64,000 bases of DNA from Pinguiococcus pyrenoidosus (taxonomy: Eukaryota; Sar; Pinguiophyceae; Pinguiochrysidales; Pinguiochrysidaceae), in contig JAAMXY010000127.1 of the NCBI GenBank assembly GCA_019677205.1, positions 62,001 through 126,000 on the forward strand. Direction: 5' to 3'. The translations under genes and the position numbers were made by a program. The stretch's first letter is position 1; each line of letters starts with the position of its first letter. Below are positions 5,748 to 53,630 of the stretch, in pieces. Under the pieces are notes generated by a model that worked only from the letters and a program-made list of their open reading frames with translations, ran no database searches and was not told the DNA's origin.

Positions 5748-5880
5748 GACGCAACCGCCGTGGAAACAAAAAAGTAGATCGCCTATCAAGAACCAGAGAG
5801 TATATCAAGAAAATTGGAAGTCTCTCCTCTCCGCCCTTTCTTCTTGATGCTGCTCAGTCGCTTGTCATGCGTCATACATG

Positions 5881-7435
5881 CTTCCCCCGATGTTGGCAGG
5901 CTGAGAAGCCGGCGGCAGAAGCGCCGCAACAAGCGCCAGGTGCAGCTTCTGGCCCCGCTGCAAGCTGGATCCGCGACCTCCCCCGACCCCGTCGCCAAGA
6001 AGGACGAGAGGCCCTACCTTTTCAAGGCAAGCACCACGTACCACTCTGCACTGCACAATACAATCAGCATGGTCTAACTCGTCGCGTCGCTATTCGCCGT
6101 GTAAACACAGGTTCCCGGGCCACTAAGCCAGTCGAAGAGCATGCCGGCACTGCAGCCTCTTGACGACCTGCGGACGCAGGAGCACCTCCGGCAGTACTAC
6201 CACAAGCGAGTGCAGTCTGTGCTCGCTCCCATCGTCGAGAGTATGCTCGCGCAGGGAGTCACTGCTCCCGAGGAGTTTCTCGTCAGCTTCGTGGGCGCCA
6301 AGGATCCGCGGCTGGCCAAGGCCGCCGACCGCATCAAGCAGAAGAAGATCCTGATGCAGCAGCAGCAAGCCAAGACGCAGGCGCTGAGGCAAGCCATCGA
6401 TACGACGAAGCGTCAGATACGGGAGGCGCTGCTTCGGCAGGAAGATCGGCAACAGAGGCGCATGGAAGAGGAGGAGGTGAGTCTGGCAAAGAGCCCCAAC
6501 AGAGTGCCAAGTGCTTCGAGTGCCTCACGACGTCTCTTCCGCAGCGGCGAAAGCAGTTCGTCATGCTGCAAGAATCCGCAGAATGCTCGCGCCTGGCGAA
6601 GGATCGCCTCGTGCAGAAGGATCCCGTTGCCGCCTTGGCTGGGTGCGTGAGCGTTCACGCCACCCAGCTGCGCTTTTCCTCGCGCTATGGCGTCGTCGCC
6701 GAGAACCTGTTCGAGAGGCGTTCTCACGTGTCCGTGGCGAAGGAAAGCACAAGCTTCTCCTCTCGATATGGCGTTAAGCAAGTCATGGGCTCCGCACCAG
6801 CTCGAGCTCTCAAGACCACGGCGAAGAGAGAACGGCCGGCGGACTTTTCGCTGTTTAAGCATGTCAAGCGAATCCTCGAAAGCCAAGACGCCGCAGACCT
6901 CGCAGATGCGGTCGCGGAGATTGTGCTGAAGCGACGGCCCGATCTGCCAGCTGCCGTGGATGGTCTCATGCGCACGAAGCTGGCGCTTGCTGAGAAGAAG
7001 GCAGCGATCCTCAGGATCCAGGCCGGCTTCCAAGAGGCGCAAAGCGACATCGACACGGCGCTCGAGAAGCGCAGGGAGCGGCTGAAGAGAGTCGAGGAAG
7101 CACGCCAGCAGCGGAGGGGGGAGCTCAAGATGATTGCGGAGAAGCGCCCAGAGCTCCGCGCCCAGATTGCCCGCCTGCTGGATAGAGACGCGGCGGTTGC
7201 GCGAAAGGCGGCCGAGACCGAGGCCCTAAAGATGCAGACGCTCCGTGCCAAAGCTTCCCTAGTGTCTGCCCTCCAGCGCCACGCAGAACGAGTCGCGAAA
7301 CGAGACGAAGTCGCAGCGCTCTACGCCGCGTACCTCGGCGGACTTGCCGACCGCGAGGAAAGGCTTCGTGTCCTTCGTGCAGTTCGAGAGACGCGACCAG
7401 ATCTGATCGCCAGGATCGACGCGGTGGAGGCCAGA
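5881..7435. repeat. Segmental duplication, copy A (1,555 bp)
   Basis: Matches 40844-42398 in the same orientation with a constant offset of 34,963 bp, so there is no net insertion or deletion. By eye about 28 single-base differences are seen (about 98% identity). The block starts ~260 bp upstream of an ATG and ends inside the third protein repeat of the full-length gene. Beyond 7435 the two loci share nothing. Confidence 0.93.
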
Positions 7436-11500: not shown

Positions 11501-14500
11501 GCGACGTCGTGCCTCCGCCAGAGGAGGTGGCCATGAACATGGTGTCCACCGTGTTCCAGGACGACAAAGCGACAAGTGGAGGGCAAGACACTGAGTACGC
11601 TGCTTTGTTGGCAATCGGCCGAGAGTTACCTGCCGCCGCGCAACCGATGCCCGACTCACCCGAGGGCGACCACCAACCGTCCTTCGATGACAAAGGGCTC
11701 TTTGACCTGCCGCCGCTCTACAAGACGGGCCCAGGGACGGTCCGCGAGGACAGTGTGACGATTCCCGAGACCCCGACAAAAGGGATGATGACCAAGCGCC
11801 GACTTGGACAACTGGGCGCTGCGGTACCGTCTTCCGAGGAAGCTGCATCCGAGGAGGAAGCTGGACTCGCAGACGCCTCCCTCCAAGCCGGCATCGCTGT
11901 CCGCGAAGAGGAGCCGGCAAATACTGCTCACGACAATGGCATAGCGCGCTTTGTGTCCGAGGAGGAGCTCGAGGTGAAGGGCGGCGTGGAAGTAGCGCGA
12001 AGCACCAGAAGCGAAAGCGTCGCCGATCGTATTGTCGAAGTGCGGAAGCGGATACCCAGGCACTACGAGCCGCCGACGTTGGCGTCGATCTTGTCAGGTT
12101 GCTGTCGCGATGTGGTTCGAAGATGCACCCGTGGTGCGAACCAGGATGGGAAGGGTGAGTACACCAAACTGGTTGACGAAGAAGCCGCGCAAGCGCCATC
12201 GGCCAGAGGAGGAGCGCTCCGATACGAAGACCTCACGCTCTTTCACGCCATCCTTGGCGGCTTCCTGCTGCCATCGGAGCGCAGACTTTTGGAAGCGATT
12301 CTGGCAATGTTCGTTATCGCTCTTGCTGGTGCGTTAGCCAAACTTGTCCACTCTTGGCGAGCCGGAAGACAAGCCACTAAATCGAAAATTGCCAGGCGGG
12401 ATCTCAATCTCCCTCAGCACGCAACCGGCGTACCTAGGGCACGCCTTCTGGGTCGGTGCATACCTCCTCTTCCTACTGGGGTATGTCTTCGCAAAGTACT
12501 TCAACACCCTCGAATGGGACGTCACCATGACCCGAGCCGTAGCGGCAAGCGCAGTAATCTGGACGGCATTCTGCTTGCTCTTCTACTTGCTTGAGCTGGA
12601 CATCACCGTGAACGACGCAAGCGCCGTCTGGGTCTTAAATGCCTTCCTCCTTGTCCCAACGGCAGTCCTTGGCCTCTTTGTACTCCTGCGATGGGCTGAT
12701 GGCGACCTGAAGCTGCCACGGACGTTCTTGCTCAAACAGCTGAGAAGCGCCCCTCTGTTCCTCGCGCTCTCGCTGATCTGTCTCTGCAGCCTTTTCTTCT
12801 TCGGCAGCGTCCTTTTCGGCATCTTTGTCACCTTGCTGCTCTTCCTGGGGATGCTTGCGTATGGCTTCGCGCGGAGCTGGGCTGCGAATAGCTACCGCCT
12901 ACCCCCGCGGACCCAGAAGCTGTTGAAAGCGCTCGTGCTCGTCACCATGATCAGCAGCGGCGTCGTTGGACTGACAGCCCCCGTCGACCGTGCGTCCTGC
13001 TTGACAGTCTTCTTCTTGACGTACATCGGCCAGCAGGTCGTTCTCGCGCTCAAGAGCTGGAGCAGCGTTGATACCGAGAGTCCGGTCTTCGCGACGAGGT
13101 GGCTTTTCCCGGTGTTCGTCTACAACCCCCAAGAAGACGTTGCGGTAGATATGTCGCCAGCCGTCCTTCGCATCGTGTATGCTGCCTTCGCGGGGAGCAG
13201 CTGGGGAGTCAGCGTGGCTGTGCTGGGAGGCGACTTCGGCCTGGGAATCGTGCTCGCCTGCGTCTTCCTACTAGGTGGCTTCTTCCTCACCGCCGCAGCG
13301 ACCGTCGGACTGCCGATCCGACTGGGCGAAGCAGTCAAAGTGCTCAGCACCGGCAGCCTCGGCCTCGCGGCATCGCAAGCGACCGACCAGGCACGACAGC
13401 GACGTCAGAAAGTAAGCTTCGAGTGCAAGGCGTGGGACGCGAAGACGGCTTCTGCTGATGCGCCGGTGGAACCGCGGGACTCGTCCTTCTCCAAGGTCGG
13501 TGCCATCGCTCAAGATCTTCACGAGGCTTTGCTCGACCTGCGGTTTGAGAAGACCTCGCAAAGGCCAAACGCACTTCCAACTGTGGGGGATGCTGACAAG
13601 GCCGTGGGTGGTGGAACGACCATCAGGAGGATGGTGTATTCCCTTTTTGCGGATCCTCTTGGCGATGTCGCCGCATCCCCAAGGGCCGATGCTGTCTTCT
13701 CCGCCAGCGATGCCATCGCGGAGAGCATCATCGGCGGCGTCGGTCCCTTCGCCATGCTGGGCTTCTTCGGCCTCGTAGGGAGCTGTGTCGCATGGACGCA
13801 AGCGACAAGAAGCCTGCAGCATCTTGTCAAGGCCTACGATCACAAGGGCCTGCGGGCGCTGCCCGCACCGACAAGGCCACTGAACGCGCTGTACATCCTG
13901 AGAAGGCTGAGGCCAAAGTGCCAGGATTTGCAGAAGACGTATGCTGCCGAAGTACGCGCCCTGGCACACTTCGAGATGCTGGTGATTCTCGCCGCGGACG
14001 CAAGGCTGCGGCGGCAGGCTGGGCTACTACGCAAGTTCCTGCGGCAGATGCGCTTCAAGCTGCTGAGCATGGGCCTCGCGCCGCCGACGCAGGCGCTTCG
14101 CGCCACCGGCGCCGTCAACGTGCCGCTGGTGGCCAAGTGGATTCTGACGCTGGAGGCCTACGAGCGAGAGCGCTTCCACAGTCTGAAAGTGGAGTTCAAC
14201 GTCGCTCAGCGCCAGCGCGATGAGCGAATCAATCGCGACGTAGAAGAGCGCCAGCGAGCCGTACAAGCACTTCAGAGGCTGCGGCGGGGCCGAGAAGCTC
14301 ACATGCTGCGTCAGAACGCGCTCTGGCACCGCTCCAAGCTGGAGTCCCGACTGCACGCCTTCGCTGCAACCCTCGAGGAAGCCGAGCAGCAGTTTCTCCA
14401 CAAAAAGTCTCAGGACTGGATGGCGGGTCTCGTCCAGCTGGAAGAGCTGTCGGAGGAAGCGAAGGCCTTGTACGAGCGCTTCCGCGTCGAAGTGCTGCGC

Positions 14501-16486
14501 GAAGGCCTAGGCTGCAAGCTGCTCGACATCCGCGAGTATATGAACGACATCGATGTCTCCCACGTGTCCGTGCGGCAGGGGGAGAAGCCGCGAACGTACC
14601 AATTCGTCGACGACGAGTTTCCACCGGACAACGACGCCCTCTACGGATACGACGAAGATACGCACGCCCTGCCGCTGGACGTGAGCAGCTGGCACTGTTC
14701 TCTCGCTCTGAACGCGGACGCTCGGCTCTTCGGTGGCGCCACCGATCCAGACGACGTCCGTCCTGGCTTCTTTGGTGACGACTGGCTCATGTCCGCGCTC
14801 AGCATGCTGGCGGCCGGCGGCGGCGTCGGCAACAACACTGTCGATCCGCAGATTGCGGCGCTGTTCGTCGCGTTTGAAGACAAGCAAGGCCGGCCGGTGT
14901 ACAAGTCGGACACCGGCGTCTACGCGGTGCGCCTGTTCAAGGGTGGCGTCTGGGAATACGTCGTCCTGGACGACTTCTTCCCCATGTTGCACAAAGGGCG
15001 GTATCTCAGCCAGGCGCCGGAACAGTTGGACGTCGCCGAAGTGGAGAGGCACCTCTCAGAATCCCGGGGCGCCGCGTGCGCCCATTCGCCAGGCTTCGAC
15101 AAGATCTGGGTGGCGTTGGTGGAGAAAGCCTTCGCAAAGTACTACGGCGGTTATGGCACCCTGCGGCATGGCTTCGTGCACCTGGCGCTCCAGGATCTCA
15201 CGGGCTGCTTCACCGAGGAGATGCCTCTCGTCCACGCCGCTCAAGGAGCCGGGCAGTCTCACGTCTGGAAGCTTCTGCGGCGCCACCAAGCGAATGGATG
15301 CATCATGGGCGCCACGTGTCTGCCAGAGCGCCTGGCGGACGAAAGCGTGCGCGAGCTAGGGCTCGTCTTCGGCGGCGTGTACGTTGTGTACGAGGTGCGC
15401 CAGGTGGACCGCGTCCGCTTGATCATGCTGCGCAACCCAGCGGGAGACCACGAAGAGTGGCGAGGCGACTGGTCGGACGCTTCTCCGCTGTGGACCCGTC
15501 GGATGAAGAAGAAGCTGGGGTTGAAACCAGACGCGAACGACAACACTTTCTGGATGGGCTTCGACGACTTCTGCAACGTCTTTCAAAGCGTCTGCATCTG
15601 CCACTGGAGGGATGCCAGCATCTGGCGCACGCACAGCTTCGATGGGACGTGGCACCAGCCACAGAAACCCGAAGAGGAGGACGCCGCCACACCAGGCGAG
15701 GGCAGGCCGCCATCAGTGTCTCCAGACGAAGAAGCCAGCGCGGAGAGGTCGCGGACTCGGAGGAAATGCGGCACCGCAGGCGGCCTCCCGACGCTAAGCA
15801 ATCCCGATGCCGACGTCGAGCAGAACCCACAGTACGTAGTGATGACGCACTGCGCTGCGGACATCACTATCACGGTCACGCAGCGGGCCGCCAGCGGCGC
15901 TGCCGCGGACGTCGTGTGGCCCTTCTCCATCCTCGTGTTTCGCGGGGAGCAGGACCCCAACACTGGCGTCGTGGCAACGGTGAACAGCGTCGACCACGAG
16001 AGGCTGCTTGTGCACACGGGCTCGCCCCAGATCCGAAGAGAGCTCCGGCTGGACAGGTCGTATGGAGAGGGGATCTTCATCGTGATGATTGCGACGTATT
16101 TGGAGAAGATGGAGGGCCCTTTCCACGTAGAAATCGCGTGCAACTGTGATGCAGAAGTCGGCCAACTGTGGCCGCCGCAGTGGAAGTCGGAGCTGCAGCG
16201 GCGGATTGAAGGCGCCGCAAAGGCCTTGGACGACGCGAAGCAGCGGATGAAGGAAGTGGGGGCCAAGCACTTCGTCGCGTTGCATGACAAGCTGGAAGAC
16301 GAAGACGAAGACGAAGACGAAGACGAAGACGAAGACGAAGACGAAGACGAAGACGACCATGGTGATGAAGTAAGCGTGAAGAGCAAAGGGAGCGGGGAGA
16401 AGGCGCGGAAGGAGCTGTCGCCTCAAGGTAGCCAAAGCGCTGCAGGTCGGGATGACGTTGAGCTTGGAGAAGGCAGGGCTACGTAA
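8596..16486 (+). CDS. Giant membrane calpain-like protein (DEK1/TML-calpain type), catalytic residues replaced
   Basis: Two exons, 8596-12328 and 12396-16486, joined over a 67-bp intron (phase 1); 2,607 aa. Order of parts: signal peptide (1-18); C2 domain (about 31-140, GTSDPYVSVDVAGV); extracellular region to ~410; a first group of about ten membrane segments; an acidic cytosolic loop (about 960-1230); a second group of about nine membrane segments; a long charged helical arm (about 1730-1970); a calpain CysPc domain (about 2010-2323); a calpain-type C2-like domain (about 2392-2495); and a (DE)n run. This is the layout of plant DEK1 with an extra N-terminal C2 domain. The calpain triad is altered: the Cys motif reads GFFGDDWLMSAL (Asp2040 for Cys), the His motif FGGVYVVYEV (Gly2238 for His), while LRNPAG keeps Asn2258. 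It should be proteolytically dead. Confidence 0.88.
16295..16354 (+). repeat. (GAAGAC)10 microsatellite coding an Asp-Glu run
   Basis: Ten copies of the hexamer gaagac lie inside the last 200 bp of the DEK1-like CDS and encode alternating Glu/Asp. The frame is kept on both sides, so length changes in multiples of three would be tolerated. Confidence 0.95.
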
Positions 16487-21630: not shown

Positions 21631-24600
21631 ATGCGGCAGGCTCCGCTGCGCATCCTCTCGGTCTTGGTGACCTTCGTGGGCATTGAGCCTTCGGTCTGGA
21701 CCTCCGAGCCGCCTTGCCAGTCTGCGGCGTCGCACGTAGCAGCAGATGGACAGGTGCTGCAGCAAACGCTGCAAATTCTGCACGACAGCCACGACTATGC
21801 GGCGATCGTGCAGCTCGTCGATGCAGTTCGGCAGCAGGACCCGCACCTTTTGCAACCCACAGGCTCGGCCTCGCTCTGGGAGTACTACGGTAGGACCCCG
21901 GCTCCGTGAGCAAACTGAAGCCATGGACGAGTGCCGCGTCCATGCCTCAAAATGCAACCGACGTTGCACCAGGATTTGCCCTGTACGGAATGCGGGACTT
22001 GGCCGGCGCGGAGGCGGCGTTCTTCAGAGCCCTGAGGGACAATCCAACGCGAAGCAGCACGTGGTGCAACCTGGGCGACGTGCTAGTTGCATCCCTACAG
22101 GTAAAGATGTTAAGATCTGAGACCCTCGTCTTAGCAGCGCCGCAGGCATGTCTCAGATCAAAAGCAGGTCTCCAAGGCCTTGAAAGCGTTCTCCTTTGCC
22201 AGACAGTACAACAACTCGCTGGGGTGAGCGCGGATCTACGAAGTTCGTCGCAATCTGAACTGAACAAGATGTGAGCCACCCTCTCCTGTTGGTGGGCAGG
22301 CCTCATAAGATCTACAAGGCGAAGAGCTGGGTGGCGGACTGGTCTCATGATGACGCGCTCGTCGGGGAAATGAAGAGCATGGCGGCTGCTGCTCTCCGCC
22401 GCGGAGAGGCTCTTCCTTTCAGCATCACCGACTTCCCCCACTTCGCTCCACAGGTATGATGTCGATGATCGGGCCTGCACGGCAGTGAGGCGGACGTCGC
22501 TCGCTTCGAATTCGGTCATTGTAGGTGGAGACCATTGCGCTCTCTATCGCTAAAACAAGCCATCCGCACATATCGCAGCAACTGAAGGAAGCGGCCTTGG
22601 CATCTTTGTCGGTCAAGTCCACGAGAGCTACGCACAGCCGGTACCACGATCTGTTTGACAGGGTCCGGCTGCGTCGGAGGACGCTTCGGCTTGGGTTTCT
22701 GTCGTCGGACTTTGGCGTCCATCCCGTCTCCTCCCTGGTCCGAGGCTTCATACGAAGGCTAGGTCGAGATCCAGAGACCCTCGTCTTCGTGTTCAGCCTC
22801 AAGGACGACCCGAGCTGGTGGAGAGACGATATCCGGCGAGAGGCCTCCGTCTTTGTCGACCTACCAAAGGCGTCAGCAGCGGCGACAGCAGACGTCATCG
22901 CCGGCTACGAAGTTGACATCTTGGTGGAGCTGAATGGGAACACGCTGTTCTCGGGCCTGTCCGTCTTAGCCTACAGGCCAGCACCGCTACAGATCTCGTG
23001 GCTTGGTCTTCCCACGACGACAGGTATGCTGACCACGGCGAGGTGGGCACAACAGGTTTACGTGGCTTATCGCTGAGCGCATGTCCATCACCGTACAGGA
23101 GCGCCCTACGTGGACTATTTCATGACGGACTGGAGTGTCGCATCGCCGGAGCTGCTTGCTGGGTCTTTCTCAGAGCGCCTGTTGCTGCTCCCGCCGAGCT
23201 ACCTGGTCAATGACTTTGCCGACTTGCAGGTGGCCTGTTTGAGATCCTTGCTGATGCTGCGAGCATGAAAGCCACTCATCAGAGGCAGATGTAGGGGCAC
23301 ACGGTGACCGACGGGCGCCTCTACAGGAATCCTCTGCACCCAACGCCAGGTACCTCAGAGACTTTCTGCGCCTTTCATTCGTGGATGCTGTGCCTGAAGT
23401 TCTTTGGGGAAAGACCTCTGCGGCAGCGTCAACGGAACTGTACCGCCGTCTCGGCTTCGACGTCGCAACGTGGACGCCTCCCTCTCGTCCGTCGAAGACG
23501 CCGAGGCTTTCAATTTTCTCTTCGCGTGCCTGAGCAACTGGCAGAAGATCGATAGGTCCGTCGAGCACCCATGCCGCCGTCGATGCCACCGTTGTCCCAT
23601 GCTCATGGGAGTATCAGGCCGGTCTTTCAGGTCTTTGCCAACATTCTCCGGCGATTTCCTGAAGCCGGGCTGTGGTTCCAGCGCTACCGCTTGTGGGAGG
23701 ACGCCAGTGCCAATCTTTGGAAGACCGTGGCCGCGATGGGCGTCCATCCGCGACGAATCATCTTTGAAGAGCTGGTGCGTAGTTGGTCATAGAGATGACC
23801 CCGCCCTCCTTCCGCCACAGCCCTAAGGGCCCGTATCGGCTTTTCACCGGCAGGCGCCATGGGTGGTGCACACGCAGTGGAAGACCGCTGCTGATGTGGT
23901 CCTCGACACCACCCTGAAGAACGGCCACACGACCGGTGAGTCGAGTCGGATGGCGTTGACTTCGGTCGGATGGATCGGATGAGCGCCTTTCTGCTGATGC
24001 CAGGCCTAGATGCCGTGTGGGCGGGCGTGCCGCTCATCACGATGCCAGGGGCAACACCGGCACAGCGAGCTGGATTAAGCTTCGCCGACGCCGTCTCGTT
24101 CGGACAGAAGAAGTTTCTCAGAGATGTCGAGCTTGTCACGTCCGCGGAGGCCACGGTCGTCTACTCACTCAAGGCCTACGAAGACCTCGCCTTCCGCCTG
24201 GCTGAAGACGAACAGCTCTTGGCGTCGCTCCGCCTTGCCTCGGAGGATATCCGCACACTTCGGTAAGAAAGATCCAGAGCCGTCCTTGTGACTGTTTCCC
24301 GCAGATTGGCTTCCGTCGGATCTCACGTGACATCGCAGGAACGGCCTCTTCGACGCCGAGGGCTGGACGAGGAGGACACGTCGGGCGTTGGATGCTCTCG
24401 TCGACGCCCAGCAGGGATACCGGGGAAATCCGTTTGCGAACGTGTCGCAGAAGAGCATGCCCCACGTCTTCTTCGGAGATTTAGCAGCTGGCGCGCAGTC
24501 TCGTGAGCGGCTTCCCGTCAAGAGTGGCCTAGAGCCGAACGGCACCATGCTCTGTGCATCCTCTGGAAGCGGTCCAACACTGCCATTGGGGCCATCGCAC

Positions 24601-25351
24601 GTCGATCTGCCAGAGAACGCCTCGTTCGGCGAGGACGAAATGCTTCTGCTGCACGTCGGAGGCAAAGAACGACGAGATGGCTGGACCATCGTGGACGTTG
24701 ACGACCGGAGCGAAGTTGACGTCGTCGCTCCGATGTGGGACATGGGAGCTTTCCGCAACGCTTCGGCAGTCGCGATCTACGCCAGTCACTGTCTCGAGCA
24801 CGCCTCGCACGAGCAGGTGCATGCCACTCTCCAGGAATGGCACCGGCTGCTGAGGCCAGGCGGCCTGCTCATGGTGGCGGTGCCGGACCTGGTAGCGCTG
24901 GCGGAGCTGCTGCTCTCGCCGCCTCCTCGCTTTGATGCAGCCCAACGGTGCGCTCTTTCCTTTTGTGGTTTCATGAGAGAGGCTGCTGCGATGTACCTCC
25001 GCGGAACCGCGGGCGTCACGCCCAATCAATCTCACACGCCTCTCCTGCTCGCATAGGTGGCAGATCCAGCGAATGATGTTTGGCGGCCAGACGAACCTCT
25101 TCGATTTCCATCACAGCGGGTTCGACGAGATGACGCTCAGCACCTTGCTTGCCCAGCATGGCTTCTGCGGCGTGCAGCGCGAGGAGGACTTCGGCCTCTT
25201 CGACGACGCCAGTATTGGCACCTACTCGGGGAAAGGCATCAGCCTGAACTTTGCCGCTTCGAAGTGCGCCGAAGCAGGCGACGTAGGGGTTGTGCACGTC
25301 GGCTATCCCGGATCGCGCGAGAAGCGCGTCGTGGTTCTGCCGGAGGCATAG
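21631..25351 (+). CDS. Secretory GT41 (O-GlcNAc transferase/SPINDLY-like) fused to a SAM-dependent methyltransferase
   Basis: Exons seen: 21631-21889, 21973-22100, 22168-22223, 22300-22453, 22525-23023, 23099-23229, an exon ending at 23555 (start unresolved, 23230-23420), 23618-23774, 23854-23935, 24004-24262, 24339-24992, 25057-25351; about 940 aa. Residue 1 starts a signal peptide (MRQAPLRILSVLVTFVGIEP). A short TPR-like region follows (GMRDLAGAEAAFFRALRDN). The GT41 part has LRLGFLSSDFGVHPVSSLVR, YRPAPLQISWLGLPTTTG, an FLFACLSNWQKID block and the split DTTLKNGHTTGLDAVWAGVP motif. Without a stop, the same exon that closes GT41 (NGLFDAEGW) continues into a class I methyltransferase: LLHVGGKERRDGWTIVDVDD, IYASHCLEHASH, LLRPGGLLMVAVPDL, IQRMMFGGQTNLFDFHHSGF, FGLFDDASIGTYSGKGISLN. 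The signal peptide implies ER/Golgi or plastid-directed trafficking, unlike cytosolic OGT. Confidence 0.85.
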
Positions 25352-25457: not shown

Positions 25458-26492
25458 CTATGGTTGGTCTCCATTCTCTTCCGCTTCGATCTGCGCTACT
25501 GCATCCTTGGCTATTTTCGAAACCACGTTGATAAAAACACCGAGGCCGCCCAACGCGGCGACGTATATGTACCATGGCGTGCCTGTTGACATGCTGGAGT
25601 TTGCCACCGCCGTGCTGACCTCGCGACCCACCTGTCCCGAATACACGTACGCGACGGTCCCGGGCATGAACCCGAAAAACGTGCCCCAAAAGTAGCCCCA
25701 AAAATCTACAGCGCTGAGCCCATAGAGGTAGTTGCTTAGCGCGAAAGGCAGCAGCGGGCTCAGCCTGAGCAGCAGCACCAGGCGGAATCCTTCCCTCCCC
25801 ACGGCCTTATCGACGGCGCTCCACTTGGGATTGGAGGCGGCAAACCCCTTGACGTACTGCCGCAGGAACGTCCGGGACAGCAGGAAGCTGATGGAGGCGG
25901 CCACGGTTGCAGACAGCAGCACAACGCTGGTGCCGCGGAAAGTGCCAAAGAGATACCCCGAGGACGCCGTCAGCGGCACGGCCGGCAGCGCCACCAGCTC
26001 GGCGAGCGTGTACACCAGCGCGAAGTACACGTAGCCCATGGGGCCGGCGTCCTCGATGACTTTCACCGTGGCTTCCAGGGTCTCCCGGACGTCGAAGTTC
26101 TGCAAGTACTCCCCCACGCTCACGCCCTTGGCGCTCGCGATTGCCCCCAGAATCGCGAAGCCCAGGCCTCCCACCACAGTCACGAAGGTCACGCCCGCAG
26201 CCGCGATGAGACCACGTGGTAACTCCGCCGCTTCTTCCACCTCAGGCGCCTGGGAAAGCGCGTTCTGCCGCTCCTCCTGCGCTTTCACGGCCTTGATTTC
26301 GCTCTTGATCGGGTCCGCGTCGTCCTTGGTGGACGTGGCTTCATGTTTGAAGCGCGCGCGAGCGCCCAGAGCCGAGCTGCGCGGCGCAAAAGCCGGCTGG
26401 ACGCGGCGGCCGGACGCCGAAGGGACGTACGCGGCGACAGAGACGAGGGCGGTGCAGAGCGTCAGCACCGCCACGGGACCTCGTAACCTCAT
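25458..26492 (-). CDS. VTT-domain (TVP38/TMEM64/DedA) membrane protein, probably plastid-targeted
   Basis: Single exon, 344 aa, ATG at 26492. The N-terminus is a signal peptide (MRLRGPVAVLTLCTALVSVA) followed by a Ser/Arg-rich stretch containing AFAP, the bipartite type used for complex plastids. After an acidic linker comes a VTT/SNARE-associated domain: ALPAVPLTASSGYLFGTFRG (re-entrant Pro/Gly motif), FLLSRTFLRQYV, then RLVLLLRLSPLLPFALSNYL and FFGFMPGTVAYVYSGQVG. These are the hallmark segments of the TVP38/DedA superfamily, which includes thylakoid and envelope proteins in plants and lipid scramblases elsewhere. It converges on the GT41 fusion gene with ~106 bp between stops. Confidence 0.88.
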   Translation of the reverse strand: MRLRGPVAVLTLCTALVSVAAYVPSASGRRVQPAFAPRSSALGARARFKHEATSTKDDADPIKSEIKAVKAQEERQNALSQAPEVEEAAELPRGLIAAAGVTFVTVVGGLGFAILGAIASAKGVSVGEYLQNFDVRETLEATVKVIEDAGPMGYVYFALVYTLAELVALPAVPLTASSGYLFGTFRGTSVVLLSATVAASISFLLSRTFLRQYVKGFAASNPKWSAVDKAVGREGFRLVLLLRLSPLLPFALSNYLYGLSAVDFWGYFWGTFFGFMPGTVAYVYSGQVGREVSTAVANSSMSTGTPWYIYVAALGGLGVFINVVSKIAKDAVAQIEAEENGDQP

Positions 26493-27056
26493 GGCCCTAT
26501 CCTATGCCGAAAGAAAACCGAGGGGTGGCCTCTCTGCGGAAGGCGAGCACTTCTGTCTCTGCCACTGCGGCACCTCAGCGCCGGAGTGGGACGTGACGTG
26601 AAGTTCAGCTGTGGAGAGGGTTGGGAGGATCGCCTGCGCTTGATTTCAACCTTGGAGGGATGGAAACAGAGAACCCCGGCAACTGTGACGGACAGAACGG
26701 CCCGGACTTGAGTTCGGTCCGTCACGGGATCTTGCATCGAATCTGATGAGCCATCGCGATATGGACACCCACCACGAAGTCACAAGATCGATATGGAAGC
26801 TTCTCGAACTCGTGTGGTTTTGGGGTTTCAGCGCCACAGCCCTTTGTGGGAAGCGCACTGCGGAGTTCCACGGCCATCCAAGAGGCGACGCCGTGCCCGT
26901 TCGGTACGTATGTAGCTGTTGATCGCGACGATGGACTTTCGGCCCAACGAGCATGGAGGGAAGTCGCTTCGTCCGAGAGCTACCTCCTCTAAACCCCTCC
27001 ATGTTCCTTTCCGTCAATCTCAGAATCGCAGTTCGCCAGACGCCAGTGCAGCCGAG
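26493..27056. other. Divergent promoter region, VTT gene / Rab18
   Basis: 564 bp between outward-facing starts. No motif stands out and no coding content was seen. Confidence 0.45.
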
Positions 27057-37576: not shown

Positions 37577-39940
37577 CTACGTCCCCTGTGACAGCGACGT
37601 CCCCTGCAGTGCAAACAGGCCGGGACCTTTGCGCAAGAGGTAGCACTCATGCCTCATCACCTCCAGCAGATTCTCGAAATCCATGCCTCGCATGCCCATC
37701 AGTCCCGCATTCTCGCGCAACTCCGTGAGGCTGAGAAGAGGGCTGCGTTTCCGCATGGTCACTTGCTGCAGACGCTTGACGAGCCTTTTCAGGCGCGAAG
37801 ACAAGCCTTGACCGCCGCCTTTTCCGCCTGCGCCTGTGCCAAAGCCGGAGTCGAAGTCCAGACCCAGGCCTTCGCTGCCGGCTTGGAGCATGCTCTCCTG
37901 CATGAGCGCGACCACCTCGTGCGCGTCGTTTTCCGTCACGATCTCTCTCAGGGACAATTTTGCCCTCGCCTCTGCGAGACGGATGAGCGACTCGAGCTGG
38001 CGCGTCGTCACCGGTACGCCGCCTTGCCTGCTACCCTTTCGCATCTCCTTGAACTGGTCCTGCAGCACGCGGGCCGCTTTCGGGCAGAGTCGCGGCCGAC
38101 AGAAGGCCTTGCAATACGCGAGGTACTTGCGAAGCATGGCCGGCGGCAGGAACTTCAGCGAGGCTTCGGTCTGGTGCATCTGCCTCCCGTACATGCCACA
38201 CACGCGGCGAAGGTACGTGGAGAGGCCCTCGTCCTCGAATGCTCGGAAGGCGAAGTCTCGGCAGCTCTCGTTCACCTCCTCGGGGGGGATGGCGAGTTGC
38301 ATGCTGCGATCCGCCTCATCCCTTGGATACGCTTCAGGGAGGCATCCGCTGTGTGCTGACATGACATGCCTGGACAGCATCGCGTCCCTCTCGGCGTCGG
38401 GATCGTCCACCAGGATGAACACCAGGTCGAAGCGGCTGAGCAGCGCCGAGCTCATCTTCAGGTTCTCTCGCACGGTCAGGCCTCGGTTGTAGTTGCCACC
38501 GATCGGGTTCGCGGCCGCGAGGATCGCGCATCGGCAGCTCAGCGTGGCGACAACACCACCCTTGGCAATGCTCACCCGCTGCTGCTCCATTGCCTCCAGG
38601 AGGGCGCTGTGATGCTGATGCATCTTGTCAAACTCGTCCAGGCAGCACACACCCTGATCGCTCAACACGAGCGCACCTGCCTCTAGGCTGGTGTCGCGGC
38701 CGTCCTTGTGCGCCGTGACGGTGAGGCCCGTGGCCGTGGTCGTGTTGCCACAGACGTAGACGCTTCGCGGTGCACAGGCCGCCGCCGCGATCAGCATCTG
38801 ACTCTTCCCCATCCCTGGATCACCGACGACGATCACGTGGGGATCTGCTCGCAGCGGCACGTCAGCAGGTCGCTGGGTGCCGCCAACGAGCGCCAGCAGA
38901 AGGCCCATCTTCACGAGCTCCTGTCCCTGGATGCCCGGCGCCAGGCTCGCAATCAGCAAGGGAAGCGGCAACGCGTTTCGCGCCACCTTGGCGACCAGCT
39001 GCAGTTCCGCGGCAGAGAAGCGAAGGCCACTGGCGACCTTGTCGTCCGAGTGACTCCGCGAAGCTACGGCGGAACGCGTATTGGCCACGCTGTTGGCCAG
39101 AATGTAGAGCACAAACAGGCTCGACTCGAGGGCTTTCTTCCCGCCCTGCCCAGCGGACAGCATCGCGTTCTGGGTTGACACCACTCCCGCGACTCGCACG
39201 ACGTCCCCGGGGACGCCGGAGTCCACGAGCGGCCCTCGGAGCTCCACCGCAATGCTGGCTGGCACTCGCCCCGCCTCGACGCATTCCGTGTCCATCTCCT
39301 GAAGCCGAAGCTTCTGGTGATCCACCGTCACCGCGGTGTCCCTCAGCAGCTCGAAGCGGTTGGAGCGGCAGCGCGACGTGAGACAGCGCTTCGGATACTC
39401 AAAGTTGCCATCCACGAAATGCTTGGTCACGGCACCGCCACACTTGCAGCACTCAAAGTCCACCTGCACCACCAAGGGCCGCACAGAGGAAGCCCGGATG
39501 ATGCTGCCCGTCACCTCCACCAACCGCCCCGCGACATGACTGCGCACGGCAGCGAGCGGCAGGCTGGGCTTCACGTTGATGAACTGGGCCACGAGCGCCT
39601 CCTCGGGCACGTCGATGCCCAGGCGTCGCATGGCCACCAGAATGGCCAGACTCACGCATCCGATGGACTTCGCCGGCTGCTCATGTAACACTCTGCTGAA
39701 GTCTCGCAGAGGGACCGCCTCGCAGAAGCTGGAGAAGTCGAAGGAGTATGTCGCGCGGCTGCTCTTCAGACACTCGCCGTTGAGGACCGTAGCAGCTCCC
39801 GGAGACGCGAGGAAAGCGCCGAGGACCGCGATCAACGTCAGGCGCCCATCGCCGTCTGCGGCTTCGGCTTCGCCGTCGAAGTACGTCGGCCACACCGCGC
39901 GAAGTTCTCGAAGCTCTTCAGGATTCAGCTGCTCAGTCAT
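37577..39940 (-). CDS. MCM8: MCM8 replicative/recombination helicase
   Basis: Single exon of 787 aa with the first ATG at 39940 (the frame is open 51 bp further but without ATG). Features: N-terminal MCM domain; zinc ribbon with CCKCG and CLTSRC pairs; AAA+ core with Walker A GDPGMGKS (Lys379), Walker B/MCM signature CCLDEFDKM (Asp435-Glu436), a sensor segment ILAAANPIGGNYNRGLTVRE and the arginine finger LLSRFDLVF; C-terminal winged helix. VYVCGNTTTATGLTVT and LEAGALVLSDQGVCCLDEFD identify MCM8 rather than MCM2-7 or MCM9. MCM8 works with MCM9 in homologous recombination. An 800-codon gene without introns is unusual beside its neighbours. Confidence 0.93.
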   Translation of the reverse strand: MTEQLNPEELRELRAVWPTYFDGEAEAADGDGRLTLIAVLGAFLASPGAATVLNGECLKSSRATYSFDFSSFCEAVPLRDFSRVLHEQPAKSIGCVSLAILVAMRRLGIDVPEEALVAQFINVKPSLPLAAVRSHVAGRLVEVTGSIIRASSVRPLVVQVDFECCKCGGAVTKHFVDGNFEYPKRCLTSRCRSNRFELLRDTAVTVDHQKLRLQEMDTECVEAGRVPASIAVELRGPLVDSGVPGDVVRVAGVVSTQNAMLSAGQGGKKALESSLFVLYILANSVANTRSAVASRSHSDDKVASGLRFSAAELQLVAKVARNALPLPLLIASLAPGIQGQELVKMGLLLALVGGTQRPADVPLRADPHVIVVGDPGMGKSQMLIAAAACAPRSVYVCGNTTTATGLTVTAHKDGRDTSLEAGALVLSDQGVCCLDEFDKMHQHHSALLEAMEQQRVSIAKGGVVATLSCRCAILAAANPIGGNYNRGLTVRENLKMSSALLSRFDLVFILVDDPDAERDAMLSRHVMSAHSGCLPEAYPRDEADRSMQLAIPPEEVNESCRDFAFRAFEDEGLSTYLRRVCGMYGRQMHQTEASLKFLPPAMLRKYLAYCKAFCRPRLCPKAARVLQDQFKEMRKGSRQGGVPVTTRQLESLIRLAEARAKLSLREIVTENDAHEVVALMQESMLQAGSEGLGLDFDSGFGTGAGGKGGGQGLSSRLKRLVKRLQQVTMRKRSPLLSLTELRENAGLMGMRGMDFENLLEVMRHECYLLRKGPGLFALQGTSLSQGT

Positions 39941-40843
39941 GGCTGCGGAGTCGCAGTCGAGTCCGCTTCGGAGAGCGCAGCCCAACGCCAAACACGGCGG
40001 ACTTCGGAAGCTGCGCTTCTCCCGCTTCCCGGGTATTCCGAGCCTGCGGCCTTCTGGGTCAGCGAGTTGTGCTTGTGTCCCTTTGCAAGAGCCTTCCTTG
40101 GGATACTTCAGAGAACGTGCGGGAGAGAAAGGAGAGAGGAAAACGGCGAAGAATCGGGAGTCGGGAGAGAGATGCGGAGGATCTTTCGAACGAAAATGGC
40201 GGGAGAATCGCTGGCTAGGAAAAGTTTAAAGTATGAAAGATACTTATTAGAATGGAAGATGCTAGAATATTTAAACAAGTAAGTTCCTCGAGCCAATGAG
40301 GTATCGTTTGCTGACGCAATTTGCCAAGTGTTCCTCCAAGTCTACGCGACATTAGCTTCAGCAAAGCCCTCTTCTCAACATTTTCTGACGTAGAAAAACT
40401 GAAGATCCTGTAACGAGGATGCTTGGTGTCAAGGATGTAGCTCTTATAATTTAAAATAAATTAAACACATTACTACTCACAAATATGATGTCAAGCATAG
40501 AGCTCCCCAGAGGCCCTTTTTGCACAGTTTCCCCCTTTTCGCTAAGTTCCGCCAACGTTCCGTCAGGCCTGACTCTCCTTCCAACGCCGTCTGCCTCTGC
40601 GGTCTCTTGCACCAAGGGGTCTCACAACTCCTCCAAGCGCACTTTCCAACTGCCCTGCGCTCCCAGGACCCCCTGCCTCAGCCTCCCCATTGCGATGGGC
40701 TTCCACTATCACACTCCGGCCAAGAGGTGCGTGGCCTCCCGGGAGCTCCAGTCCTCCCTCCTTCTTCCTTCCTCCCTCCTTCTTCCTTCCTCCCTCCTTC
40801 TTCCTTCCTCCCAAGCCTTTGTCATGCCCGTGTTGCTAAAGCG
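39941..40843. other. Intergenic region between MCM8 and the duplicated block
   Basis: 903 bp upstream of MCM8 (minus) and of the repeat-protein gene (plus). It contains an AT-rich island at 40200-40275 and 40430-40490 (e.g. tataatttaaaataaattaa), a CCAAT motif at 40293-40297, and a short pyrimidine minisatellite (40753-40811). A long open frame across 40485-41126 has no recognisable protein content. Confidence 0.5.
40753..40811. repeat. 18-bp pyrimidine tandem repeat
   Basis: About three copies of tccctccttcttccttcc in tandem, ending about 30 bp before the start of the duplicated block (40844). The array is absent at the other copy, so it marks sequence next to the duplication boundary. Confidence 0.9.
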
Positions 40844-42398
40844 CTTCCCCCGATGTTGGCAGGCTGAGAAGCCGGCGGCAGAAGCGCCGCAACAAGCGCC
40901 AGGTGCAGCTTCTGGCCCCGCTGCAAGCTGGATCCGCGACCTCCCCCGACCCCGTCGCCAAGAAGGACGAAAGGCCCTACCTCTTCAAGGCAAGCACCAC
41001 GTACCACTCTGCACTGCACAATACAATCAGCATGGTCTAATTCGTCGCGTCGCTATTCGCCGTGTAAACACAGGTTCCCGGGCCACTAAGCCAGTCGAAG
41101 AGCATGCCGGCACTGCAGCCTCTTGACGACCCGCGGACGCAGGAGCACCTCCGGCAGTACTACCACAAGCGAGTGCAGTCTGTGCTCGCTCCCATCGTCG
41201 AGAGTATGCTCGCGCAGGGTGTCACTGCTCCCGAGGAGTTTCTCGTCAGCTTCTTGGGCGCCAAGGATCCGCGGCTGGCCAAGGCCGCCGACCGCATCAA
41301 GCAGAAGAAGATCCTGATGCAGCAGCGGCAAGCCAAGACGCAGGCGCTGAGGCAAGCCATCGATACGACGAAGCGTCAGATACGAGAGGCGCTGCTTCGG
41401 CAGGAAGATCGGCAACAGAGGCGCATGGAAGAGGAGGAGGTGAGTCTGGCAAAGAGCCCCAACAGAATGCCAAGTGCTTCGAGTGCCTCACGACGTCTCT
41501 TCCGCAGCGGCGAAAGCAGTTCGTCATGCTGCAAGAGTCCGCAGAATGCTCGCGCCTAGCGAAGGATCGCCTCGTACAGAAGGATCCCGTTGCCGCCTTG
41601 GCTGGGTGCGTGAGCGTTCACGCCACCCAGCTGCGCTTTTCCTCGCGCTATGGCGTCGTCGCCGAGAATCTGTTCGAGAGGCGTTCTCATGTGTCCGTGG
41701 CGAAGGAAAGCACAAGCTTCTCCTCTCGATATGGCGTTAAGCAAGTCATGGGCTCCACACCAGCTCGAGCTCTCAAGACCACGGCGAAGAGAGAACGGCC
41801 GACGGACTTTTCGCTGTTTGAGCATGTCAAGCGAATCCTCGAAAGCCAAGACGCCGCAGACCTCGCAGATGCGGTCGCGGAGATCGTGCTGAAGCGACGG
41901 CCCGATCTGCGAGCTGCCGTGGATGGTCTCATGCGCACGAAGCTGGCGCTTGCTGAGAAGAAGGCAGCGATCCTCAGGATCCAGGCCGGCTTCCAAGAGG
42001 CGCAAAGCGACATCGACACGGCGCTCGAGAAGCGCAGGGAGCGGCGGAAGAGAGTCGAGGAAGCACGCCAGCAGCAGAGGGGGGAGCTCAAGATGATTGC
42101 GGAGAAGCGCCCAGAGCTCCGCTCCCAGATTGCCCGCCTGCTGGATAGAGACGCGGCGGTTGCGCGAAAGGCGGCCGAGACCGAGGCCCTAAAGATGCAG
42201 ACGCTCCGTGCCAAAGCTTCCCTAGTGTCTGCCCTCCAGCGCCAGGCAGAACGAGTCGCAAAACAAGACGAAGTCGCGGCGCTCTACGCCGCGTACCTCG
42301 GCGGACTTGCAGACCGCGAGGAAAGGCTTCGTGTCCTTCGTGCAGTTCGAGAGACGCGACCAGATCTGATCGCCAGGATCGACGCGGTGGAGGCCAGA
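40844..42398. repeat. Segmental duplication, copy B (1,555 bp)
   Basis: Same block as 5881-7435, direct orientation, constant offset of 34,963 bp, about 98% identical. Here the homologous segment is embedded in a complete gene that continues for another 834 coding bases, so copy B looks like the source and copy A the derivative. Confidence 0.93.
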
Positions 42399-50201: not shown

Positions 50202-53200
50202 ATGCGCGCTCTGCTCTCGGCGGCCCTCGTGGCCCTTTCGGCGTCGTCAGCGCGCGCGCTGGCGCCCAGGTGCGCCGGACTCGCGGGCGAGCTACGCTTT
50301 GCGCACACAGCGGTTTTGCGCCGCGCGAGTTGGGGGGCACAGCGGGTGGAAGATGCCCGGTGCTTCGGAGGCTCATCTGCTTCTCTTCTGGGCTTGGCAA
50401 GGCCTGCGTCGCTGCGGCGCGGCTCCGCGCTTCTCATGTCCAAGGGCCCGCCGCTGGGCGACAAGTACTGCGTCGATCTCTCTCGAACCGTTCGCCGCAA
50501 GACCTCCACTGTGACCGCCGGACCCGTGAAGGTGAGACGTGCACCATGTGCTGGTCGATGTACCTCGGGAGCGAGTTGCAGTGCAGTGGGAGTACCAGAG
50601 TGCGCGCAGAGCGCGGCGAAAGGGCATCGACGTGTTGATGAATCTTCGGAAGGGCGGGGGGCCTTGCCATGCCTGGAGAGGAATAGAGACTGAGCGCCTT
50701 GTGTTGCCTTCTTGCAGATCGGCTCGGACCATCCCATTGCGCTGCAGACCATGACCACGACGGACACCAAGGATGTGCAGGCGTCCGTGGATCAGATCAT
50801 GAAGTGCCACGACATGGGCGCCGACCTCGTCCGCCTCACCGTGCAGGGCAGGAAGGAGGCCGAGGCTGCCATGAAGATCCGGGAGTCGCTCTTCCAGAAA
50901 GGTAGGCGGATGGTAGGCGGATGGAAGGAATTTGCGGTAGATGCCCAGGGCTTCGTGATGCCGATGCCGCCGGTGGACAGCTCGGCGTCGTTGCTGACGT
51001 TGTCCACAACCCGGCTGCATCAAGGCTACGACGTACCGCTGGTTGCCGACATCCACTTCCAGCCCAAGGTCGCTCTGATGGTGGCGGACGCCTTCGAGAA
51101 GATTCGCGTCAACCCGGGAAACTTCGCCGATGGAACCAAGTCCTTCGAGGAGATGGTACGCCGCCTTCATGCCTTGGGAACGCCAGCCGCAGAGTGGTCC
51201 TAAACGCGCATCTCGCGTCACCTAGGTATACGAGAACATGGACGACTTCCAGGCGGAGAGACCTCACATCGAAGAGCTCTTCATTCCGCTCGTGGAGAAG
51301 TGCAAGCGCCTCAACCGTGCGATGCGCATCGGAACGAACCACGGTGCGAACAGGAAGCTTGCAGGTCTCCGGCCTGGTGGGGAAGGTGCACCTCGTCTCA
51401 CCGAGATGCCGTGATCGCAGGCTCCCTCAGCGCGCGCGTAATGTCCTTCTACGGAGACACCCCGGAGGGCATGGTCGAGTCCGCCATCGAGTTCGCGGAG
51501 ATCTGCCGCGACCAGGACTACCACAACTTCGTCTTCAGCATGAAGGCCTCCAACCCCGTGGTCATGGTGCAAGCCTACCGCCGCCTCGCTGCTCGGATGT
51601 ACGATCTGGACTGGAACTACCCCCTTCACCTCGGAGTGACAGAGGCGGGAGAAGGTATCGCCTTGCCATCCACTCGTGCGGAGCACCTGACATGCTGCCA
51701 GTTTCGGGCCTGGCTCTTACACTCGCAATCGCATGAATGAACAGGTGAAGACGGTCGCATGAAGTCTGCCATCGGCATTGGCACGCTTCTCCAAGATGGC
51801 CTAGGCGACACCATCCGTGTCAGCCTCACGGAGGTGCGCTTCAATGAGCTTCCAAGCTGATCGCACAGAGCGAGCTCTGACGTGAAACCAATTCCCCGCC
51901 CCATGCAGGATCCGGAGCTGGAACTGGCCCCGTGCCGCGAGCTCGCCCGTCTTGGCACCGTCGCAGCAGCGCCCGAGTCGGTGAGCTTGGCAAACTTCAC
52001 CTAGCAAGGGAACAGCATCGACTTATAGGCCTTCTTTGCCCTTTGCAGGAGAGCCGATACACGATCGTTCCGCCCTTCTCCGAGACCAAGCGCGACTTTG
52101 CTCAGTTTGAGAGGCGCAAGGGGTAACGACCAGTAACGACCAGCACCCTGTGCTGTTCTCGATGGCTCCGCGCTGACGTCTGCGTTTCGCTTCTTTCTCC
52201 TCCCTTCCCTTTCCTTCTCCTCCCTTCCCTTTCCTTCTCCTCCCTTCCCTTTCCTTCCCCTTCCTTCCCTTCCCTTCCCTCCCCTGCCATTCCTTTCCTT
52301 TCCCGCCTCTTCTCCAGTGCCCCCTTGGAGAAGGCCGAGGCGGAGACTTTCCCGACCGACCAGTACTTCCACCGCGACGGCAGCGTCTTCTCCGTGATCA
52401 GCTCCGATATCCTGGACACCCCCGACGTGCTCTACCAGAGCATGGGGTGCAAAGTTGCTCTGGGCATGCCCTTCAAGGACATTGCTACCTCTGACAGCCT
52501 GGTGCTGAAGGACGTGCCCGCCTCGGACAACACGGATGCGCGTCTGGCGCTGAAGCGGCTTCAGGAAGTCGGCGTGGGCGTCTTCGCGCCGTGGGAAGCT
52601 CTCCAAAGCGCGCCGATCCCGGAGGCGGTCGCGATCACGTCCCTCAAGGAGATGTCCGACGGCTCCGGCTACGCCAGCATGCTGGAGGCCGCCCAGGCGA
52701 CGCGACTGGCGGTCGTCCTCGACGGCACCGAATCCGATGAAGCCTTCAACGCCGTGAAGGACCTGCCGAAGGACGTGCTCACGTGCCTCTTCCTTAAGAT
52801 GGACTCGGGCGTTTCGCGGACGCACGCTTCGCGCCGTATCTTTGAGCTTCTGCACCAGGCGGAAATGGACACGCTCGTGATGCACTACGTCGTGGCGCAG
52901 GAAGAGGAGGCCGGCCCCGTCGGCCGCGAGAAGTTCGTGCTCAAGGCCGGATCGGAGGTCGGCCCTCTTCTCGTCGACGGCCTCGGCGATGGCATCGTCT
53001 TGGAGAACGGCAAGGTCGACGATGACATCACGTATCCGCTCGCGTACTTGCGGGAGACGGCCTTCGGAATGCTGCAAGGAAGCCGCATGCGCACCGTCAA
53101 GACCGAGTTCGTCTCGTGCCCGAGCTGCGGCCGCACTCTCTTCGACCTGCAAGAGGTCACGGACCAGATCCGCCAGCGCACCGGCCACCTTCCGGGAGTG

Positions 53201-53630
53201 AGCATTGCTATCATGGGATGCATCGTCAACGGACCGGGAGAGATGGCCGATGCCGATTTCGGGTACGGAGTGGCCTCGTCTGCCTGCCTCCGTGTAGGTT
53301 CTGCTCAGCGAGACCCTGACGAATTTTCGTTTCTCCCCGCTTCCAGATACGTCGGTAGCGCAGCAGGCAAGATCGATCTCTACGTAGGCAAGACAGTAGT
53401 ACGCAGAGGTAAGCCAGGGACAAAGGAAGAGCGAATCGGGAGCCCGAGACAGCGGACAAGGACATGGAGCCGGGTCGGCGACTCAAGCCCTCTTGCAACT
53501 CGCAGGCATCAACATGGACAGCGCTCCCGATCAGCTTGTGGACCTCATCAAGGAACACGGCATGTGGAAGGACCCGGATCAGCAGGCCGAAGAGGAAACG
53601 GAAGTGGAAGACGAGAAGGTCGTCGTGTAG
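50202..53630 (+). CDS. ispG: 4-Hydroxy-3-methylbut-2-enyl-diphosphate synthase, plastid type
   Basis: Eleven exons: 50202-50531, 50718-50901, 51025-51155, 51226-51343, 51421-51654, 51745-51833, 51909-51980, 52049-52122, 52318-53262, 53347-53408, 53506-53630; 787 aa. The bipartite presequence is [19 protein letters not shown] followed by LAP. IspG (GcpE) converts MEcPP to HMBPP in the plastid MEP pathway. TIM-barrel blocks: [80 protein letters not shown], and [20 protein letters not shown]. Exon 9 begins with the large insert found only in plant, apicomplexan and some bacterial IspG, then carries the Fe-S domain ([31 protein letters not shown]), with all three cysteine ligands. The end [14 protein letters not shown] is typical. 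Confidence 0.95.
52190..52300 (+). repeat. Intronic pyrimidine minisatellite in ispG
   Basis: Intron 8 of ispG (52123-52317, 195 bp, about twice the usual length) is filled with tandem copies of a ~20-bp unit (ctcctcccttccctttcctt) grading into simple ttccc repeats. The array is purely pyrimidine on the sense strand and leads into the 3' splice site. Confidence 0.9.

What the first reader, a model, noticed from the sequence alone, without database searches (positions are those of the whole stretch)
21631..25351. O-GlcNAc-transferase-type GT41 fused to a SAM methyltransferase, with a signal peptide
One exon (24339-24992) carries the end of the GT41 catalytic domain (NGLFDAEGW) and, in the same uninterrupted frame, a class I methyltransferase with IYASHCLEHASH, LLRPGGLLMVAVPDL and, in the next exon, MMFGGQTNLFDFHHSGF. 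GT41 enzymes modify Ser/Thr with GlcNAc or fucose in the cytosol; this one starts with a signal peptide. The methyltransferase type resembles ones seen beside glycosyltransferases in bacteria. A two-step 'add sugar, methylate sugar' enzyme of the secretory pathway is a reasonable hypothesis and not one I know to be described.
Basis: partly seen in the sequence, partly recalled or inferred. Interest (0 to 1): 0.8.

Follow-up and report, generated by a model that had tools for sequence, protein, structure and literature searches.

The report
Sugar-adding enzyme fused to methyltransferase
This algal gene joins in one protein a part related to enzymes that attach sugars to proteins and a part that looks able to attach methyl groups, it probably works in the cell's secretion pathway, and water moulds have relatives of it.

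Summary
One gene (21631-25351; 13 exons, 941 aa) of a photosynthetic eukaryote encodes a hydrophobic N-terminus, a GT41 catalytic domain and a class I methyltransferase (MT). The end of the GT41 and the start of the MT share one exon (24339-24947, not 24992).

The fusion is not unique: full-length relatives occur in oomycetes, a partial one in a brown alga, and bacteria made such fusions separately. The bacterial MT gene often lies near a GT41 gene (29 of 80 loci, three of them fused).

New points: (1) the residue proposed to govern GT41 donor choice (Tyr in SPY, Cys in human OGT) is Lys in 23 of 23 eukaryotic fusions, so neither fucose nor GlcNAc can be assumed; (2) two cysteines placed for a disulfide occur in 21 of 22 eukaryotic fusions and together in 0 of 141 other MT rows, which with the conserved hydrophobic start points to the ER/Golgi lumen; (3) three relatives keep a decayed MT tail.

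Most likely it glycosylates secretory proteins and methylates the added sugar. Donor, acceptor and both activities are unproven. Ten searches of an open-access library gave no paper on the fusion.

The parts
21631..25351 (+). Whole gene, 13 exons: 21631-21889, 21973-22100, 22168-22223, 22300-22453, 22525-23023, 23099-23229, 23295-23349, 23414-23555, 23618-23774, 23854-23935, 24004-24262, 24339-24947, 25057-25351
   Evidence: Spliced model of 941 aa, no internal stop; exons 7-8 chosen among nine joins
21652..21684 (+). Hydrophobic segment ILSVLVTFVGI after two Arg: signal peptide or signal anchor
   Evidence: Most hydrophobic 11-residue window of the protein (rank 1 of 931). No signal-peptide predictor was available
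21871..22223 (+). Short TPR-like region (about residues 81-147)
   Evidence: TPR_2 and TPR_14 below their cut-offs (earlier model)
22684..24366 (+). GT41 catalytic domain (residues 253-650; exons 5-12)
   Evidence: Pfam PF13844; domain limits from a profile of relatives; OGT-type residues D261, H265, K472, H533, H552, T553, T554, D557 invariant in 11 of 11 aligned rows
23917..23919 (+). Codon of Lys549, the site of Y744 in SPY and C917 in human OGT
   Evidence: Lys in 23 of 23 eukaryotic fusions; role of the site from PMC9715652 (passages)
24367..24639 (+). Linker, residues 651-741, in the same exon as the end of GT41 and the start of the MT; contains an HVF motif
   Evidence: Open frame; H[VI]F in 7 of 11 aligned rows
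24640..25268 (+). Methyltransferase domain (from residue 742; exons 12 and 13, intron 24948-25056)
   Evidence: Methyltransf_11; family alignment keeps all 17 invariant columns
25166..25168 (+). Codon of Cys881, first cysteine of the eukaryote-specific pair
25265..25267 (+). Codon of Cys914, second cysteine of the pair

Best explanation
A two-domain enzyme of the secretory pathway. The hydrophobic N-terminus takes it into the ER/Golgi lumen; the GT41 half moves a sugar from a nucleotide donor onto passing proteins (Ser/Thr most likely) or their glycans; the C-terminal SAM-dependent methyltransferase then O-methylates that sugar. Shown by sequence: the fused gene, its conservation, the kept motifs of both halves, the conserved hydrophobic start and the cysteine pair. 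Inferred: lumenal location, SAM binding, activity of both halves, action on one product. Not determined: donor sugar and acceptor.
For: One exon carries both domains, and relatives with both are found in oomycetes and, partly, a brown alga. The same MT family is fused to GT41 separately in bacteria and lies near GT41 genes in 29 of 80 bacterial loci, against an upper chance rate of about 1.6%, so the two activities belong together. Separate origins: GT41 tree and rejection of a joint MT clade (AU p 0.023). OGT-type catalytic residues are kept. The MT family keeps a class I fold in a model of P0057 (pLDDT 96.3), with RebM and AtmM (sugar O-methyltransferases, recalled) among the VIA-align rows. 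Hydrophobic start in 12 of 14 eukaryotic relatives and 0 of 5 bacterial fusions. Cysteine pair in 21 of 22 eukaryotic and 0 of 141 other rows. O-methylated sugars occur on algal secretory glycans, and a 2020 review knew no characterised enzyme for it (PMC7773692, passages).
Against: No transcript, enzyme or localisation data. The MT family's glycine loop is one residue shorter than in more distant rows. P0139, P0140 and P0142 keep the tail but have lost SHxLEH and GGQ, so a methyl step is not needed in every lineage. The fold match is shared by very many methyltransferases and shows no substrate. The hydrophobic start and the cysteines are inherited traits, so they are few independent observations. 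Two residues near the donor nucleotide differ from human OGT (W530 and W536 for Lys and Arg).
Confidence: 0.5

Rival explanations
1. The MT half is active but methylates something other than the sugar just added, for example a side chain or another glycan residue of the same client protein; fusion only brings both enzymes to one client.
For: Nothing in the sequence fixes the methyl acceptor; the fold is that of a large class with many acceptors.
Against: Repeated pairing with GT41 in eukaryotes and bacteria is more easily explained by a shared product.
Confidence: 0.25
2. The tail is a structural or regulatory pseudo-methyltransferase that no longer transfers methyl groups.
For: Three relatives have a decayed tail that still keeps both cysteines; shortened glycine loop.
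Against: The window keeps all 17 columns invariant in 33 other family members, including YASHxLEH-type and GGQ-D-H motif residues; the decayed tails show what relaxed selection looks like and the window does not look like them.
Confidence: 0.12
3. The protein is not lumenal: the hydrophobic segment is an anchor with the catalytic part in the cytosol, or it is the first part of a plastid-targeting sequence in this alga.
For: The organism has light-harvesting genes, and algae with complex plastids use signal peptides for plastid import (recalled); the window's segment is short.
Against: Oomycetes, which have no plastid (recalled), share the segment; two Arg before and Glu after it fit N-in, C-out (rule recalled); the cysteine pair suggests an oxidising compartment.
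Confidence: 0.1
4. Two adjacent genes were joined by eye into one.
For: No transcript was seen; an ATG in frame lies in the linker at 24546 or next to it.
Against: One uninterrupted exon spans the junction; P0001 and oomycete proteins are predicted as single chains that align across it. Base composition by codon position in the linker (GC1-3 0.65, 0.53, 0.67) is between that of the domains and the introns (0.59, 0.56, 0.56), so it helps only a little.
Confidence: 0.03

Closest known systems
O-GlcNAc transferase, OGT (GT41; human OGT, PDB 3pe3 and others)
   Same: GT41 domain with SSDFGxHP, QKID-type Lys, the His of the uridine loop and NGHTTxxD; nearest solved structures by sequence and by fold; GT41 trees put the eukaryotic fusions beside it
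   Different: Lys549 in place of Cys917; few TPR-like repeats; hydrophobic start; methyltransferase tail; OGT works in nucleus and cytosol (recalled)
SPINDLY, protein O-fucosyltransferase (GT41; PDB 8dtf, 7y4i)
   Same: GT41 fold; Asn and Lys of the pyrophosphate site as named in PMC10027727 (passages) have counterparts N469 and K472 by motif
   Different: NGHTTxxD instead of the GTTTTCE type; Lys549 instead of Tyr744; SPY is nucleocytoplasmic and has 11 TPRs
Bacterial TPR-GT41-GT41-MT proteins (P0017-P0021; locus L039) and the single-GT41 fusion L083
   Same: The same MT family at the C-terminus of a GT41 protein
   Different: Two GT41 domains in P0017-P0021 and L039; SPY-type motif; no hydrophobic start in 5 of 5 and no cysteine pair in 8 of 8; separate branches in both trees
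Stand-alone 'predicted SAM-dependent methyltransferase' of bacteria (Methyltransf_11 family members such as P0057, P0065)
   Same: Homologous to the MT half, up to 51% identity over 85%
   Different: Not fused; no cysteine pair; function unknown
ER enzymes EOGT (GT61) and POFUT (GT65)
   Same: Would share the compartment and the task of O-glycosylating secretory proteins (search listing for EOGT, passage for GT65)
   Different: Other glycosyltransferase families; not compared by sequence here

Membership tests
GT41 | Sequence match to the family profile above its cut-off | tested here: met
   PF13844, 203.9 bits, cut-off 25 (earlier model)
GT41 | Catalytic-domain fold of GT41 | tested here: inconclusive
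   Not modelled for the window protein; the relative P0001 matches human and Xanthomonas OGT but its model is of modest quality (pLDDT 68.7)
GT41 | Glycosyl transfer from a nucleotide sugar | not testable with these tools
   Needs an enzyme assay
OGT (protein O-GlcNAc transferase) | NGHTTxxD-type donor motif | tested here: met
   NGHTTGLD
OGT (protein O-GlcNAc transferase) | Cys at the donor-choice site (C917) | tested here: not met
   Lys549
OGT (protein O-GlcNAc transferase) | Long TPR superhelix | tested here: not met
   Only a short TPR-like region below Pfam cut-offs
SPY (protein O-fucosyltransferase) | Tyr at the donor-choice site (Y744) | tested here: not met
   Lys549
Class I SAM methyltransferase | Sequence match to a methyltransferase profile above cut-off | tested here: met
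   Methyltransf_11, 27 bits, cut-off 21.2; other methyltransferase profiles below theirs
Class I SAM methyltransferase | Fold | tested here: met
   Shown for the homologue P0057 (about 51% identical to the window's MT half), not for the window itself
Class I SAM methyltransferase | Full glycine-rich loop of motif I | tested here: inconclusive
   LHVGG, one residue shorter than the LNLGSG or LHLGCG of more distant rows; true of its whole subfamily
Class I SAM methyltransferase | SAM binding and methyl transfer | not testable with these tools
   Needs an assay
Secretory-pathway protein | N-terminal signal segment | tested here: inconclusive
   Hydropathy only, conserved in relatives; no dedicated predictor was on hand

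The most novel reading that the evidence does not exclude
A third specificity class of GT41, old in stramenopiles and working in the secretory lumen, that attaches a sugar other than GlcNAc or fucose (its donor pocket carries an invariant Lys, which could pair with an acidic sugar) and caps it with a methyl group in the same protein. Since bacteria made the same pairing separately, GT41 plus this methyltransferase would be a recurrent system for methyl-capped protein glycosylation.
Probability: 0.3. Interest if true: 0.85.

Novelty: new variant of a known kind. Interest (0 to 1): 0.62.

Why it matters
Known eukaryotic GT41 enzymes act in nucleus and cytosol (SPY; OGT: recalled). A conserved lumenal GT41 with its own methyltransferase would carry the family into the secretory pathway of oomycetes and algae. 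It would offer a candidate for sugar O-methylation in eukaryotic secretory pathways, for which a 2020 review on microalgae knew no characterised enzyme (PMC7773692, passages). It also gives a natural third state, Lys, at the single residue proposed to govern donor choice in GT41 (PMC9715652, passages), so that proposal becomes directly testable.

Tried and rejected
Rejected: a 12-exon, 892-aa model with a 276-nt intron 6, replaced after P0001 showed the missing exon; the searches used that earlier version. Rejected: one fusion event shared with bacteria. No support for a viral source: one scan of viral contigs with the single MT sequence, which reaches close relatives only, confirmed none. Little use: Rfam on the window, no match; NCBIfam, only weak partial matches far below cut-off; sequence search of solved structures with the MT profile, five weak partial hits; Foldseek and VIA-align rows for the MT show the general class and no close family that stands out. 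A first count of the cysteines by text pattern picked the wrong GF motif in the fused rows and was replaced by an alignment. Naming the organism got no further than: light-harvesting genes present (29 matches), one of them nearest to light-harvesting proteins of several algal groups in solved structures, and an OGT-like gene that groups with a Phaeothamnion protein; a stramenopile alga is suggested, not shown. Literature: ten searches of an open-access library; of the papers named here I saw search listings and passages, none as a whole. PMC11468063 (passages) reports about ten GT41 genes per brown algal genome, a donor site favouring a UDP-sugar in selected sequences, and possible new activities; the word methyltransferase does not occur in its main text. 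PMC6168125 (passage) lists one Phytophthora cactorum gene as GT2, GT41 in a table; whether it is this family was not checked.

Full report
GENE. The window lies in an unnamed assembly of 23.7 Mb in 768 contigs. The finding is real: one + strand gene, 21631-25351, 13 exons, 941 aa, introns GT..AG of 62-109 nt. The ATG at 21631 is the first in a frame that opens at 21601 after a stop. Exons 7 and 8 are the least certain part: one search lists nine joins and I took the one that fits the closest relative, P0001. Base composition by codon position is coding-like in both domains; in the linker it lies between domains and introns.

RELATIVES. The fusion is not private to this window. Of the 186 proteins returned by three capped searches, 27 carry both domains by profiles that I built from relatives: 22 of eukaryotic type and 5 bacterial. 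Of the 22, 17 are named: 16 oomycete proteins (Phytophthora, Nothophytophthora, Pythium, Lagenidium, Saprolegnia, Achlya, Aphanomyces) and one brown alga (Ectocarpus fasciculatus, partial: only the first part of the MT). In the window's own genome the MT was found only in this gene, while other GT41 genes exist, one of them OGT-like on contig C617. An HVF or HIF motif in the linker is shared by 7 of 11 aligned rows, and two near-identical GT41 proteins, one of them named Ochromonas danica, end just after such a motif.

BACTERIA. A scan of prokaryote genomes confirmed 287 MT relatives, of which the tool kept the best 80 loci. In 3 of 80 the MT is fused to GT41; in 26 more a GT41 frame lies elsewhere in the locus, 23 on the same strand and 3 on the other, 15 of the 23 within 300 bp of the MT frame (frames read stop to stop); 51 have none, some of them on short contigs. 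As a yardstick, 19 of these genomes, picked by me and mostly ones with a neighbour, hold 122 GT41 part-matches in 112.2 Mb, an upper chance rate of about 1.6% per 12.5-kb locus.

TREES. In the GT41 tree (83 rows, quick method) the 16 eukaryotic fusions lie in one starred set of 24 rows with 8 rows in which no MT was recognised; next to it, at 94 without a star, is a starred set of human OGT, the genome's C617 gene and a Phaeothamnion protein. The 13 bacterial fusion domains lie in the other half of the tree, in a starred set of 23. In the careful MT tree (68 rows) the 13 eukaryotic rows form one side of a branch at 89/88, not starred, inside a starred set of 25 that otherwise holds cyanobacterial or unnamed rows. 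Seven of 8 bacterial fusions group with one unfused row, and the eighth (L083) lies apart. Holding all eukaryotic and bacterial fusions together is rejected (AU p 0.023). Against a tidy story: the quick MT tree with 113 rows put the window and P0001 apart from the oomycetes with weak support, and the careful tree nests them among the oomycetes, where holding the oomycetes together is not rejected (p 0.39). So the pairing arose at least twice, perhaps three times, which speaks for a functional link.

COMPARTMENT. The window's hydrophobic segment is its most hydrophobic stretch. Of 14 eukaryotic relatives given to the test, 12 have one (mean hydropathy 1.87 or more, a limit set after seeing the values); P0012 and P0015 do not; 0 of 5 bacterial fusions do. 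Eight further eukaryotic rows were not given; of these P0022 begins with such a stretch by eye, and the other seven have starts that are cut or show none. Cys881 and Cys914 are both present in 21 of 22 eukaryotic MT rows (P0015 lacks the second; partial Ectocarpus left out). Of 141 other rows (8 bacterial fusions, 77 loci, 56 of the 77 hits) none has both and one (L029) has the first; in 59 of the 141 the second column is a gap, so the first cysteine is the fairer count. By a looser text pattern 8 of 77 loci have some Cys near the second place. The two lie at the start of one strand and the end of the next in the P0001 model (positions 830 and 863), so a disulfide is plausible; no distance was measured. 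Both signs point to an oxidising lumen, but they are inherited and so count as two observations.

DONOR. PMC9715652 (passages) argues that one residue, Y744 in SPY and C917 in human OGT, sets the size of the donor pocket in GT41 and may drive donor choice. It is Lys in 23 of 23 eukaryotic fusions and in 6 of 8 eukaryotic-type relatives with a decayed or unrecognised MT (Val in 2). It is Tyr in 8 of 10 bacterial fusion domains (2 without a readable motif), Tyr in 32 and Phe in 1 of 39 domains from bacterial loci (6 unreadable), and Cys in the genome's own OGT-like gene. Among 69 other domains 34 were readable, one of them Lys. Neither GlcNAc nor fucose is therefore safe to assume. PMC11468063 (passages) favoured a UDP-sugar for selected brown algal GT41s.

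DECAYED TAILS. P0139, P0140 and P0142, of unknown organisms, have GT41 domains in the same starred set and a tail that keeps the GFC and the last cysteine but lacks SHxLEH and GGQ. The tail can thus outlive its methyltransferase motifs, which supports a structural role in those lineages. The window's tail is not decayed in this way.

MECHANISM AND NOVELTY. Best reading: a lumenal enzyme that adds a sugar to secretory proteins and methylates it. Gene, domains and conservation are shown; compartment, activities and a shared product are inferred; donor and acceptor are unknown. Both domain types are known, and databases already hold such proteins, one JGI entry being named for both halves (P0021). 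I found no description in ten searches of an open-access library, which does not cover most subscription journals. I rate it a new variant of a known kind.

Noticed in passing
window 5880-7435 and 40843-42398: A 1556-base stretch occurs twice on the same strand at 98.3% identity; the frames over it have no Pfam match above cut-off. A recent duplication or a mobile element.
   Followed up: partly
window 25461-26501, - strand: Neighbouring gene with a VTT domain (PF09335, E 2.4e-22), on the opposite strand and close to the 3' end of the fusion gene.
   Followed up: no
window 12338-16483, + strand: Long open frame with a calpain-type protease domain (PF00648, E 1.9e-49).
   Followed up: no
window 58104-60290, + strand: Trehalose-phosphate synthase and phosphatase domains in one frame (PF00982, PF02358).
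   Followed up: no
window 37580-40225, - strand: MCM helicase with an MCM8-type winged helix (PF00493, PF25051).
   Followed up: no
window 52127-53758, + strand: Part of a GcpE (IspG) gene of the MEP pathway (PF04551, E 1.3e-23), in keeping with a photosynthetic organism.
   Followed up: no
P0139, P0140, P0142 (proteins of unnamed organisms): GT41 proteins with a decayed methyltransferase tail that still keeps both cysteines.
   Followed up: partly
G000 contigs C288 and C656 (L003, L004): Two further GT41 frames of 944 and 1070 aa without introns in the same assembly, on long branches in the GT41 tree; host genes or contaminants, not settled.
   Followed up: no
L055:2797-6519: In an Acidobacteria locus the MT is the C-terminal part of a 1241-aa open frame in which no GT41 was matched; its other part was not looked up.
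   Followed up: no
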